A stretch of 40,422 nucleotides of DNA from Methanobrevibacter sp. (GTDB taxonomy: Archaea > Methanobacteriota > Methanobacteria > Methanobacteriales > Methanobacteriaceae): assembly GCA_024689425.1 (NCBI GenBank), contig JAILDN010000023.1, forward strand, positions 1 through 40,422, read 5' to 3'. Shown here piece after piece: positions 26,715 to 37,890 of the stretch; positions within the stretch are counted from its first letter, which is position 1, and each line of letters opens with the position of its first letter. The notes beneath the pieces were generated by a model. That model worked only from the letters and a program-made list of their open reading frames with translations, ran no database searches and was not told the DNA's origin. A program made the position numbers and the translations under genes.

Positions 26715-26742
26715 AAGTAAAAGATAGTAGCGGGCTAACCCG
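26715..26742 (-). terminator. Hairpin terminator at the end of the CobN-like/ExbB cluster
   Basis: CGGG-CTAA-CCCG (26731-26742) with the DUF2149 stop codon in the loop, then CTTTTACTTTTTTTT on the minus strand. Confidence 0.6.
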
Positions 26743-27073
26743 ATACCATAATCATTTTTCCCGTCTTCGGATCTTTATATACTTTACCCATTTCCGTATA
26801 TCCTTGACCAGAACTGTTTGACGTGTTCGGAGTCTCATTCAGTTGCTGTCCCTGAGTAACCTCCGACATGCTGCTGATAGTCTTCATCACCTGCTGCTTT
26901 TGTTCGGAAGTCATGTTTTCATTAAAGACAATAGCCTGCATATTCCAACTAATGATTACGAAAACAAGAAAACCGACTGCAATAACAAGCATTGCATCAA
27001 CAAGGTTTGATGTACCCGCCATGGGGTCTTCTTCAACACGACTAGATCGTCTTCTTTGTTTTTTTCTAACCAT
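26735..27073 (-). CDS. DUF2149 family protein (ExbD/TolR-like topology)
   Basis: DPMAGTSNLVDAMLVIAVGFLVFVI single N-terminal TM with an Asp; C-terminal GKVYKDPKTGKMIMVSG; directly follows the ExbB-like gene. Confidence 0.75.
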   Translation of the reverse strand: MVRKKQRRRSSRVEEDPMAGTSNLVDAMLVIAVGFLVFVIISWNMQAIVFNENMTSEQKQQVMKTISSMSEVTQGQQLNETPNTSNSSGQGYTEMGKVYKDPKTGKMIMVSG

Positions 27074-36700: not shown

Positions 36701-37890
36701 TTTAAAACTCCGCCTTTACTGCTTAAGATGTTTAGAGTATAATTAACAATCGTATTTTTAGCACCATTAACTGTAGTTTCATTAATAGGCCTAATAGTAG
36801 GGTCAACTAATTTAATTGTAGTTTTATTATTAGCACCAACAAACAAATCGCTAGAATCAATCTCTTCATCACCAATTAATAATATAACACTACCATTCAA
36901 CTCTTTATTTCCATTATTAACTGTAATAGTTAATGTATTGTTAACACCAGCATAAACAGTACCAATATATTCTGGAGTTATAGTAGCAGAAACATTGTTT
37001 TCTGGAGTATTAACTTTTAATAATTGGATTGCAGCCTTATATGAAGCATATGTAGATGCTTTTGATGAAGTATATGCGAAATTAGTGTCTTTTGATAATT
37101 CAAAAGTGTCAGTTATATTCCAAACATCATAAATATAATAATTACCTTTAGTTTGAATTGGATCAGTTAATAATTGTCCATTTAAATTATAAGTAGCATC
37201 AGAACTAGAAAGAGCAATGGATTCTAATGTAACATCATCATAATCCTTATTGAAATCTTTAGTTCTAAAGACTGTAGTTAATGTTTCTTTTGTCCATGCT
37301 TGACCAATATTTAGCCAATATGATATTTTATCATTATCATTATCATCATAAGCAAAAGTTAAAGCAATTAATTTAATTCTTCCATCAAACTGGTATCCTT
37401 CCAATTCAGTATTATTTACTGAAATTGTAATTTTATCTCCAGGAGATAAACTTTTTACTTTGTCAGTTATATTTACAAAAGTCTGATAATCAGAATATTG
37501 CTTTGAAGTAAGATTAGTTATAGGATAAATGACTGGATCATTTGCTGTACTAGTAGGATATGTCAAATTAGCAAATTCCAATATTTGTGTTGTATTACCT
37601 GTTTTTAAAGATATTTTAGTAGTTAATCCATAAGTTGGTGCACCACTTCCAGAATAAGAAGAAACAACAACATTCACGGATTTTATCTCACTTACATTTG
37701 CAGGGACCTGATAAACAAGCTCACCACTCTTTGAAGAAAAAGGATTGACTGACGGTATTTCAACCCCACCAGATACAACTCCATCTTCAACTGGAGGCAA
37801 CGCAGAATCCTCTGCAAAAACAATTCCTGAAGAAAGAATTATAAAAAACAAAAATATTGCAATAAACAAATATTCATTTCTTAATTTCAT
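33757..37890 (-). CDS. Large secreted adhesin-like surface protein (two DUF3344-like modules plus four C-terminal Ig-like repeats)
   Basis: Signal peptide MKLRNEYLFIAIFLFFIILSSGIVFAED; duplicated LGKDYEYP...ASYRDQSNLGG...FESTGxTILGLHQMVVV modules; repeated FNINGVxYxRTTxxxGxAKLNINLxPGxYIITA units; SD GGAGG before ATG. Confidence 0.87.
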   Translation of the reverse strand: MKLRNEYLFIAIFLFFIILSSGIVFAEDSALPPVEDGVVSGGVEIPSVNPFSSKSGELVYQVPANVSEIKSVNVVVSSYSGSGAPTYGLTTKISLKTGNTTQILEFANLTYPTSTANDPVIYPITNLTSKQYSDYQTFVNITDKVKSLSPGDKITISVNNTELEGYQFDGRIKLIALTFAYDDNDNDKISYWLNIGQAWTKETLTTVFRTKDFNKDYDDVTLESIALSSSDATYNLNGQLLTDPIQTKGNYYIYDVWNITDTFELSKDTNFAYTSSKASTYASYKAAIQLLKVNTPENNVSATITPEYIGTVYAGVNNTLTITVNNGNKELNGSVILLIGDEEIDSSDLFVGANNKTTIKLVDPTIRPINETTVNGAKNTIVNYTLNILSSKGGVLNSTNASYKVLYNGNLGKDYEYPNANPTLREFTVTGDVIVLTNGTYSAAGDTNRTDVYNIAFDGNVSEALLYVSYNWDKNPNDDFNTWNTTFNNQVIAPIASYRDQSNLGGYGKYGYGLVVYNVTDLVVAGENTFALNKTKGNAAVYPSNLIVLTNNKKAEFEKTVYIYEEADLLSKSNNKNLPTGFNTVFDVIDDNATLYVFAAGAQAGEGNLIINGENHSDVWSGTTKSFDIYTTDVDSDNIEVYFESTGSTILGLHQMVVVVNENKTPTADITIKSEYTSVPSIYAGVINNLTVSVENTGGSTENVVVKVLMGNETISIQNIDDYAAGETYTFNAVDATIRPITENTVNGNNNEKVNYTVVVEDANGNIINSKIVSCVVVYDGYLGKDYEYPKANSTLREFVVRGEVIVLVTDEYSAGSATNRTDKFNLTSDGNVTQALLYVSYNWDKDAKGDFNNWNTTFNGKVIAPIASYRDQSNLGGASAKYGYGLVVYDVTDLVVSGVNTFEFNKTKGTSAVYPSNLIVLVENKTCPFVYDVYILEEADLLSKSYNKNLPVGFNTTFSVADGDSMVVVFAASAQAGEGNLIVNGETHTDVWNGTSNSLTYTIFDFNSTDLSVYFESTGATILGLHQMVVVINENTSSVITAPDVEKYYKGPERFVVNVADYQGNPIVNKSVEITINGVTYTKTTDKNGNASIGLGLGSGVYTVTTKFNNTTANSIVTVLSTVNGTDLVKVYQNASQYYATFRDSQGNYLAEGTTVKFNINGVLYERKVVGNQGLAKLNINLQQGDYIITAMNTATGENCANNITVLSKIIENKDITKYYKNGTQYTVKLVGDDGKAVDAGEVVTFNINGVFYNRTTNASGIAKLNINLSPGDYIITAEYKGCKVSNQITVKPVLSAEDLTKKYGTPDQFVANLLDGQGNPATGENVTFNINGEFYSRTTDSEGNAKLNIRLMPGEYIITSSYNGTNVANTIKVTA
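34802..36660 (-). repeat. About 1.12-kb in-frame internal duplication in the surface protein gene
   Basis: ACCATTTGGTGTAAACCTAAAATAGTA at 34802 and 35921; ACAATTAAGTTACTTGGATAAAC at 35129 and 36248 (offset 1119 bp); ATAAGAAGCAATAGGAGCAATCAC at 35281 and 36397 (offset 1116). Confidence 0.9.

What the first reader, a model, noticed from the sequence alone, without database searches (positions are those of the whole stretch)
26735..37890. Surface-exposed CobN-like protein coupled to an ExbB/ExbD-like motor in a cell without an outer membrane
Seen: five consecutive minus-strand genes encode a 1377-aa secreted repeat protein, a 1688-aa CobN-like protein with signal peptide and C-terminal TM anchor, a DUF2162 polytopic protein with a CPCC motif in a membrane segment, an ExbB/TolQ/MotA-like channel, and a DUF2149 protein with ExbD-like topology. 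Knowledge: cytoplasmic CobN works with CobS/CobT and ATP to insert cobalt into a corrin, and ExbB/ExbD normally energises TonB across an outer membrane. Neither role fits an extracellular CobN in a pseudomurein archaeon. Inference: this may be an energised cell-surface system that captures, or strips metal from, tetrapyrroles or metal complexes (cobamides, F430, haem, or chelated Co/Ni/Fe) and passes them to the DUF2162 transporter. Similar gene neighbourhoods occur in methanogens, but I am not aware of a demonstrated mechanism.
Basis: partly seen in the sequence, partly recalled or inferred. Interest (0 to 1): 0.85.

Follow-up and report, generated by a model that had tools for sequence, protein, structure and literature searches.

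The report
Proton-powered surface metal-stripping chelatase
A methane-producing archaeon carries, outside its single membrane, a relative of the enzymes that put metals into vitamin B12 and chlorophyll, encoded with its own proton-driven motor; it most likely strips metal from scavenged metal complexes, and it suggests that the related bacterial heme-stripping system is powered in the same way.

Summary
Five minus-strand genes encode a DUF3344/Ig surface protein, an exported C-terminally anchored CobN-like protein (S), DUF2162 (T), an ExbB-like channel (U) and DUF2149 (V). The closest characterised relative is the Bacteroidota hmuSTUV cassette, which has the same gene order S-(T)-U-V; its HmuS removes iron from heme. 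The S-U-V core is conserved across archaea and many bacterial phyla.

The window's S is not HmuS: it keeps the catalytic His/Glu but lacks the heme ligands and the Met-rich insert.

New points: (1) In the window's genus the AAA+ motors that drive cytoplasmic CobN are essentially absent (1 fragment in 65 genomes), while ExbB/DUF2149 is near universal. (2) UV-linked S proteins always end in a membrane anchor; cytoplasmic ones never do. (3) About 20 residues before that anchor lies a short motif (KAYEV in the window; GYEM-like in bacteria) that resembles TonB's ExbD-binding D-box. Unrelated surface proteins encoded next to ExbB/DUF2149 share this tail. Across 150 genomes the tail occurs in 119/134 with DUF2149 and 0/16 without.

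Best reading: a TonB-free, proton-driven motor acting directly on anchored surface proteins, here a metal-stripping chelatase. Substrate and metal remain unknown.

The parts
26735..27073 (-). DUF2149 protein (V; HmuV-like), ExbD-like: one TM helix with the conserved acidic residue (NLVDAML, Asp26) and a short external C-terminal part
   Evidence: PF09919 1.3e-22; Asp26 conserved in 99% of 130 homologues; aligns with a true ExbD TM helix
27079..27726 (-). ExbB/TolQ/MotA-family channel (U; HmuU-like)
   Evidence: PF01618 5.5e-10; GP.LGLMGTLIPMG motif, P136, G139 and T143 in 100% of 128 homologues
27741..28451 (-). DUF2162 polytopic protein (T), candidate permease, with a CPCC motif at a helix break
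   Evidence: PF09930 4.1e-68; P110 97%, C111 91%, P112 95%, C114 92% of 71 homologues; model pLDDT 79, no confident fold match
28110..28121 (-). CPCC motif of DUF2162 (residues 111-114)
   Evidence: lies between predicted helices 100-108 and 112-129
28562..33628 (-). CobN-like class I chelatase (S), exported and anchored by a C-terminal TM helix; BtuS/HmuS-type
   Evidence: PF02514 2.1e-212; best PDB sequence match HmuS 9d26, 3.9e-86; model of residues 490-1688 best matches 9d26/9p4s (TM 0.66-0.70), then CobN and ChlH
31346..31363 (-). Catalytic loop of S: FVGRHA, His760 = HmuS His538
   Evidence: alignment; this His is conserved in 23/23 archaeal and 44/48 bacterial UV-linked S
29558..29590 (-). 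DNDDFFDYWGG: the position of HmuS His1209 is Asp, as in CobN
29066..29089 (-). Cys motif CCDCSCGN (residues 1514-1521), candidate metal-relay site just before the linker
   Evidence: CCx[CH][ST]C in 18/23 archaeal and 13/13 bacterial UV-linked S with DUF2162, 4/35 bacterial without, 0 in HmuS or cytoplasmic CobN/BchH; ordered loop in the model
28697..28711 (-). KAYEV juxtamembrane motif of S (residues 1640-1644), candidate docking site for the motor
   Evidence: tail model scores this tail E=3.5e-20
28586..28648 (-). C-terminal membrane anchor of S (residues 1661-1681)
33757..37890 (-). DUF3344 plus Ig-like repeats, exported surface protein (A), candidate capture or scaffold protein
   Evidence: PF11824 1.6e-81 and Big_1; present in 9 of 13 archaeal S-bearing loci

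Best explanation
This is a surface-anchored, proton-motive-force-driven metal-scavenging system of the HmuS/BtuS type without TonB. The DUF3344 protein captures or scaffolds substrate at the cell surface (inferred). The CobN-like ectodomain binds a metal complex, most likely a tetrapyrrole, in the class I chelatase cleft and removes the metal (inferred from HmuS). The ExbB-like channel and DUF2149 form a proton-driven motor that grips the CobN-like protein through its juxtamembrane KAYEV strand and C-terminal TM helix. The motor moves it so as to load substrate or release product, doing outside the cell what the AAA+ subunits CobS/CobT or ChlI/ChlD do for cytoplasmic CobN/ChlH (inferred). The freed metal passes by the CCDCSC loop and the CPCC of DUF2162 into the cell (speculative). 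Shown here: components, topology, conserved linkage, absence of the AAA+ partner, and the shared tail that tracks the motor across genomes.
For: Best PDB match of S is HmuS by sequence and by predicted fold. The hmuS-T-U-V gene order of Bacteroides and Prevotella equals that of the window; HmuS is a proven heme de-chelatase (PMC12583661). S sits next to U in 31/31 bacterial loci with full flanks, while TonB receptors occur in 25/31 and in 0/28 archaeal loci. Trichlorobacter carries S-T-U-V and, separately, canonical ExbB/ExbD/TonB, so the DUF2149 pair is not simply the TonB motor. AAA+ chelatase subunits: none in this genome and 1 fragment in 65 genus-mates, although 61/65 have CobN and 61/65 have DUF2149. 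Where archaeal CobN is cytoplasmic (1120-1236 aa, no TM) it lies in operons; the one of the six operons scanned by Pfam (L143) holds an AAA/VWA subunit. C-terminal TM: 71/71 UV-linked S versus 0/9 cytoplasmic ones. Juxtamembrane motif: 38/76 strict versus 5.0 expected by shuffling, 71/76 loose versus 26.4. The same tail occurs on unrelated UV-linked proteins with FmdE, PQQ/PKD and DUF11 domains. Tail model: 119/134 DUF2149+ genomes and 0/16 DUF2149- genomes. TonB's D-box, a strand next to its membrane anchor, binds ExbD (PMC10907165). Metal links: TonB-R/HupE-like/U/V/S inside a hyp cluster, bzaF, a tetrapyrrole methylase, CbiM. CobN-like BtuS of Methanosarcina barkeri responds to iron/sulfur source (PMC10846266). 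The P. aeruginosa CobN operon is induced up to 147-fold by zinc depletion (PMC4542158).
Against: HmuS converts heme in lysates and, for 1-2 turnovers, as purified protein with NADH, without ATP and without an intact membrane potential, so a motor is not strictly needed for the chemistry. The window S lacks HmuS Met79, His254, His1209 and the Met-rich insert, so heme itself is doubtful. No direct evidence of substrate, metal or U/V binding exists. S and UV are often co-inherited in one operon, so part of the genome correlation is expected. In 27 of the 40 archaeal loci UV is found without S in the fetched stretch, so UV is not specific to S. HmuT and DUF2162 are not detectably homologous, so the permease slot is variable. 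Some UV+ genomes (15/134) have no clear tail.
Confidence: 0.58

Rival explanations
1. The system imports intact tetrapyrroles (cobamide, F430 breakdown products or heme). The CobN-like protein is only a binding protein, and ExbB/DUF2149 energises the DUF2162 permease rather than the CobN-like protein.
For: DUF2162 and U/V stay together without S in many archaeal loci (33/40 U-V loci have T). PMC13227078 proposes an HmuTUV inner-membrane heme transporter. Trichlorobacter's module lies beside bzaF, a cobamide gene.
Against: Most bacterial loci lack DUF2162 or HmuT but keep S-U-V (T/HT in 10 of 31 full loci, S in 31 of 31). The tail motif sits on S, not on T. His538/Glu577, essential or implied for catalysis in HmuS, are kept.
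Confidence: 0.2
2. The KxYEV/GYEM tail is a sorting or anchoring signal of the archaeosortase/LPXTG kind, or a generic surface anchor, and says nothing about ExbB/DUF2149; the gene linkage only reflects a shared surface regulon.
For: Motif plus TM plus basic end is the general layout of C-terminal sorting signals. The tail also occurs on proteins not adjacent to U/V.
Against: The motif lies about 15-22 residues before the TM rather than at it. It is found in bacterial S and HmuS as well as archaea. It is absent at E<=1e-5 from all 16 DUF2149- genomes, several of them nearly complete. No Pfam or NCBIfam sorting model matches.
Confidence: 0.15
3. The CobN-like protein inserts metal (Co, Ni or Mg) into a tetrapyrrole at the cell surface, as a biosynthetic or repair chelatase.
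For: Family membership, and Asp at the His1209 position as in biosynthetic CobN.
Against: No AAA+ partner. Class II CbiX chelatases are present in the genome for Co/Ni insertion. Extracytoplasmic location. The characterised membrane-anchored relative runs in the removing direction.
Confidence: 0.05

Closest known systems
hmuYRSTUV heme-utilisation operon of Bacteroidota (HmuS heme de-chelatase, HmuT, HmuU = ExbB family, HmuV = DUF2149)
   Same: Same S-(T)-U-V order; HmuS-type fold; N- and C-terminal membrane segments; catalytic His538 and Glu577 equivalents; ExbB plus DUF2149 pair; juxtamembrane motif before the C-terminal anchor
   Different: No HmuY or HmuR/TonB; DUF3344 surface protein instead; T is DUF2162, not detectably related to HmuT; lacks Met79, His254, His1209 and the Met-rich insert; has the CCx[CH][ST]C motif that HmuS lacks
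BtuS class of CobN-like proteins (Rodionov 2003 as cited in PMC6460266; B. fragilis BtuS1/2; M. barkeri BtuS)
   Same: Exported, membrane-anchored CobN relatives predicted to salvage metalloporphyrins; the window S fits this class
   Different: The published class rests on S alone; the link to a motor and the docking tail was not described in what I could read
Trichlorobacter lovleyi pGLOV01 cassette (TonB receptor, DUF2162, ExbB, DUF2149, CobN)
   Same: All four S-T-U-V proteins, including DUF2162 and the full Cys motif
   Different: Gram-negative, has a TonB receptor and a separate canonical ExbB/ExbD/TonB set; gene order T-U-V-S
P. aeruginosa PA1922-PA1925 (TonB receptor, CobN-like, ExbD-like, hypothetical), Zur-regulated
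   Same: CobN-like gene co-transcribed with an ExbD-like gene under metal starvation (PMC4542158)
   Different: Zinc-responsive; authors assign the ExbD-like protein to TonB; sequences not compared here
Cytoplasmic CobNST / ChlHID class I chelatases
   Same: Same chelatase fold
   Different: Soluble, run by AAA+ ATPases, insert metal; no C-terminal anchor, no tail, no Cys motif
ExbB-ExbD-TonB
   Same: ExbB-family channel, ExbD-like TM Asp; D-box-like strand near the membrane anchor of the client
   Different: No TonB and no outer membrane; DUF2149 has a shorter external part than ExbD; the client carries its own anchor at the C-terminus

Membership tests
HmuS heme de-chelatase | Class I chelatase fold, all homologous domains | tested here: met
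HmuS heme de-chelatase | Catalytic His538 in HFG(T/A)HG and Glu577 | tested here: met
   His and Glu kept, motif changed to FVGRHA
HmuS heme de-chelatase | His1209/Glu1212 in LSLDHxxEFMGG | tested here: not met
   LDNDDFFDYWGG, Asp at both
HmuS heme de-chelatase | Site-1 heme ligands Met79 and His254 | tested here: not met
   Ala and gap in the alignment
HmuS heme de-chelatase | Methionine-rich insertion in domain IV | tested here: not met
   Maximum 6 Met in 60 residues, and that at residue 1360, outside domain IV; HmuS homologues have 7-18 at the insert
HmuS heme de-chelatase | Heme binding and NADH-dependent release of Fe and PPIX | not testable with these tools
   biochemistry needed
hmu operon | HmuY hemophore and HmuR TonB receptor | tested here: not met
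   absent from the cassette; DUF3344 surface protein in that place
S-U-V module (membrane-anchored CobN-like plus ExbB-like plus DUF2149) | The three genes adjacent; S with C-terminal TM; U-V pair | tested here: met
CobNST cobaltochelatase | AAA+ partners CobS/CobT or ChlI/ChlD | tested here: not met
   no TIGR02442 match in the genome (genome 94% complete); 1 of 65 genus-mates
CobNST cobaltochelatase | Cytoplasmic, soluble | tested here: not met
   hydrophobic N-terminus and C-terminal anchor
ExbB/ExbD family motor | ExbB-family channel protein with conserved core | tested here: met
   PF01618 over the cut-off; invariant residues
ExbB/ExbD family motor | ExbD-type TM helix with protonatable Asp | tested here: met
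   Asp26 in 99% of DUF2149 proteins, aligned with ExbD
ExbB/ExbD family motor | ExbD periplasmic domain fold | tested here: inconclusive
   DUF2149 external part is short; no Pfam ExbD match to it; the only PF02472 hit in the genome is the other pair on contig C36; no structure run
ExbB/ExbD family motor | Proton conduction and force on the client | not testable with these tools
   experiment needed
TonB D-box-like docking | Short alternating strand near the client's membrane anchor | tested here: met
   compared with PMC10907165
TonB D-box-like docking | Physical binding to the ExbD-like subunit | not testable with these tools
   no complex prediction available

The most novel reading that the evidence does not exclude
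ExbB/DUF2149 is a general proton-driven motor for membrane-anchored surface proteins, independent of TonB and of an outer membrane. It grips its clients through a juxtamembrane KxYEV/GYEM strand. Chelatases have thus evolved two interchangeable engines: AAA+ ATPases inside the cell and a proton motor outside. One motor serves several clients (CobN-like, FmdE-domain, propeller and beta-helix proteins), mostly in metal acquisition, and the HmuU/HmuV pair in gut Bacteroidota powers HmuS rather than TonB.
Probability: 0.45. Interest if true: 0.9.

Novelty: new variant of a known kind. Interest (0 to 1): 0.8.

Why it matters
The published accounts I could read treat HmuU/HmuV, and the ExbD-like PA1924 of the zinc-starvation operon, as helpers of TonB; one 2026 paper leaves open that HmuT/U/V affect HmuS. 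The archaeal version removes TonB and the outer membrane from the picture and keeps S-U-V, which points to direct coupling. If right, it would offer a reason why purified HmuS stops after 1-2 turnovers, bear on the open role of the many archaeal CobN homologues whose function the HmuS authors call unclear, and describe a proton-driven way of doing mechanical work on surface proteins in single-membrane cells. It gives simple tests: one Asp in DUF2149, one five-residue motif in S. It also bears on how methanogens and gut anaerobes compete for Fe, Ni, Co and cobamides.

Tried and rejected
Homology of HmuT and DUF2162: hhalign probability 6.5 over 45 columns, so not supported. Fold of DUF2162: model pLDDT 79, but no PDB match below E=0.13, so no transporter family assigned. 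Membership of S in HmuS proper: rejected on four residues and the insert. AAA+ partner: searched and not found. The DUF2162/Cys-motif association looks strong by simple counts (31/36 versus 4/39, Fisher 1e-11) but rests on only 3 independent contrasts on the tree, so it is only suggestive. A DNA pattern for K[SA]YEV is not specific genome-wide (totals close to the reversed control); only the position before a C-terminal TM makes it informative (13 of 20 inspected hits). Rfam and tRNA scans of the window: nothing. Papers with DUF2149/DUF2162/DUF3344/CobN together: only iron or NAC transcriptomes.
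Full report
WHAT IS THERE. The five genes are real and lie where reported: A 33757-37890 (DUF3344 plus Ig repeats, exported), S 28562-33628 (CobN/Mg-chelatase family, 1688 aa), T 27741-28451 (DUF2162), U 27079-27726 (MotA/TolQ/ExbB) and V 26735-27073 (DUF2149), all on the minus strand with short gaps. 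The closest named proteins are from Methanobrevibacter. The genome (1.75 Mb, 94% complete) holds one CobN, one DUF2149 and one DUF2162, all here. S has a hydrophobic N-terminus, a disordered Ser/Asn/Thr-rich linker (modelled residues about 1560-1660, pLDDT 24-44) and one C-terminal helix.

WHAT IT IS RELATED TO. The best PDB sequence match of S is not CobN but HmuS, the heme de-chelatase of Bacteroides (3.9e-86), and a predicted model of residues 490-1688 also matches HmuS first, then CobN and ChlH. The Bacteroidota operon hmuYRSTUV has HmuU (ExbB family) and HmuV (DUF2149) after HmuS and HmuT, the same order S-T-U-V as in the window. HmuS removes iron from heme (PMC12583661). The same paper notes that archaeal homologues exist, that their function is unclear, and that archaea lack complete hmu operons. 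So the window holds the S-(T)-U-V half of a known system, without HmuY and HmuR. HmuT is not detectably homologous to DUF2162; in a Runella plasmid a HupE/NicO-like protein stands next to U-V-S instead. The constant core is S-U-V.

HOW CONSERVED. In 40 DUF2149 loci from the phylum the ExbB-like gene is always adjacent (40/40), DUF2162 is present in 33 and S in 13 within the fetched stretch. A scan of named genomes gave 80 loci from Desulfobacterota, Nitrospirota, Proteobacteria, Planctomycetes, Bacteroidota, Verrucomicrobia and archaea. In the 31 bacterial loci with full flanks S is next to U in 31, and a TonB-dependent receptor is near in 25. In 28 archaeal loci there is no such receptor. Trichlorobacter lovleyi carries S-T-U-V and, directly beside it, a canonical ExbB-ExbD-TonB set, in a neighbourhood with bzaF. 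Other contexts are a hyp (NiFe hydrogenase) cluster, a tetrapyrrole methylase (Syntrophoarchaeum L109), and CbiM, the Co/Ni transporter component (L045). From the literature: a Zur-regulated CobN/ExbD-like operon in P. aeruginosa and BtuS proteins of Methanosarcina barkeri that change with iron/sulfur source. The common theme is metal acquisition.

WHY THE MOTOR PROBABLY ACTS ON S. First, cytoplasmic class I chelatases are run by AAA+ subunits. In this genome none was found, and among 65 genus-mates one fragment, although 61 have CobN and 61 have DUF2149; the two occur together in 60 (Fisher p=4e-4). Where archaea of the phylum have a cytoplasmic CobN (six loci inspected, 1120-1236 aa, no TM) it lies, in five of the six, in an operon of the same layout; in the one scanned by Pfam that operon contains an AAA/VWA subunit and an ECF-type transporter, and TIGR02442 matches lie beside the others. 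Second, a C-terminal TM helix is present in 71/71 UV-linked S and absent from 9/9 cytoplasmic ones. On a tree of 100 sequences the cytoplasmic CobN, BchH and archaeal AAA-linked forms group together (support 96), and the window S lies with UV-linked S of its genus. Third, archaea have no outer membrane, so the pair has no TonB receptor to energise, yet it is kept.

A SHARED TAIL. The linker of S is low in complexity but contains a short conserved stretch about 20 residues before the anchor: K[SA]YE[VI] in archaea, V.G[YF]EM[EKQ]E in many bacteria, KG[MT]VMK in HmuS. A strict pattern occurs in 38/76 UV-linked S against 5.0 expected from shuffled linkers, a loose one in 71/76 against 26.4. The patterns were written after looking at the tails, so these figures describe rather than test. 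The same tail is found on proteins unrelated to CobN that are encoded next to U-V where S is missing: large FmdE-domain proteins (L030, L040, L045-L048), a 2019-aa PQQ/PKD/beta-helix protein (L052) and a 291-aa DUF11 protein (L034). Of 20 K[SA]YEV hits inspected in six genomes, 13 lie 40-49 codons before the stop with a TM helix between. A model of the 50-residue tail was then run over the same 150 genomes: matches at E<=1e-5 occur in 119 of 134 genomes with DUF2149 and in 0 of 16 without (Fisher 2e-13); within the genus 61/61 versus 0/4. The E<=1e-5 line was chosen after seeing the table; at E<=0.01 some DUF2149- genomes have weak matches (best 4.1e-4). Eleven of 19 genomes with DUF2149 but no CobN also have the tail, so the link is not only S riding with V. 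Genomes share ancestry, so these p-values overstate the number of independent events. TonB has a comparable strand beside its own anchor, the D-box, which ExbD captures by strand addition (PMC10907165). I infer that KxYEV/GYEM is the equivalent for DUF2149. The window's genome has five tail matches, including S, an FmdE protein and a NosD-like beta-helix protein, so one motor may serve several clients.

ACTIVE SITE AND METAL PATH. S keeps the His that is essential in HmuS (His538) and the paired Glu (Glu577). It has Asp where HmuS has His1209, as CobN does, and lacks Met79, His254 and the Met-rich insert. It therefore works like HmuS at most in outline; heme is not the favoured substrate, and a corrinoid or another metal chelate is at least as likely. 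A loop CCDCSCGN (1514-1521), ordered in the model, is shared by 18/23 archaeal and 13/13 bacterial UV-linked S with DUF2162, but by 4/35 bacterial ones without it and by no HmuS or cytoplasmic form. DUF2162 has a conserved CPxC at a helix break. A relay of metal from one to the other is attractive but unproven, and the association rests on few independent contrasts.

WEAK POINTS. HmuS works for 1-2 turnovers without a motor, so the motor would have to serve loading or product release. P. gingivalis HmuS is stimulated by its own inner-membrane fraction much more than by that of E. coli, which fits but does not prove a partner in the membrane. No complex could be predicted here. The tail could still be a sorting or anchor signal. 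Substrate, metal and direction are not known for any archaeal member.

VERDICT. It is a TonB-free variant of the HmuS/BtuS type of system. The new and testable part is a proton-driven motor with a shared docking tail, acting directly on anchored surface proteins.

Noticed in passing
G000 contig C36:2675-3937 (L171:2675-3937): A second, canonical ExbB (279 aa) and ExbD (140 aa) pair in the same genome, a few kb from genes that look like precorrin-2 dehydrogenase and glutamyl-tRNA reductase; its client in a cell without outer membrane is unknown.
   Followed up: partly
L045:9299-14075, L046, L047, L040:6385-9315, L030:5777-8566, L227:239-3046, L229:2683-5547: Exported ~1000-aa FmdE-domain proteins with the same KxYEV tail, beside CbiM and DUF2162-ExbB-DUF2149 (L045) or beside a CbiM-like gene (L229): candidate Ni/Co-scavenging clients of the same motor.
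   Followed up: partly
L143-L148: Cytoplasmic archaeal CobN, mostly in a conserved operon; in L143 it is preceded by an AAA/VWA subunit and an ECF-type transporter (CbiQ, two ABC domains), with His at the HmuS His1209 position in five of six. Possibly an ATP-driven counterpart; substrate unknown.
   Followed up: partly
L149-L153, L155, L157-L159, L162: A second secreted CobN-like clade without adjacent ExbB/DUF2149, mostly with a CCHHTC motif; may use the motor in trans.
   Followed up: partly
L052:4006-8422: Two ExbB-DUF2149 pairs in tandem next to a 2019-aa propeller/PKD protein with the tail.
   Followed up: no
L124 (Actinomycetota MAG): S-T-U-V in a contig assigned to a monoderm bacterium, nested among archaeal S on the tree: horizontal transfer or a mis-binned contig.
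   Followed up: no
L132, L137, L141: Very large surface proteins (CARDB/PQQ in L132 and L137) of ANME-type archaea directly before ExbB-DUF2149; L137 and L141 end in KGYPMG/KGYQMG plus a TM helix: other possible clients.
   Followed up: partly
G006:C1:985055-987406: A CobN-like gene with nine in-frame stops just upstream of DUF2149, apparently a decayed S next to an intact U-V.
   Followed up: no
window 38107-39408 (+): The divergent AMP-ligase gene also has a same-length, divergent counterpart next to T-U-V in several relatives that lack S and A there (e.g. L039, L044, L050, L228), so S and A were gained or lost at this site.
   Followed up: partly
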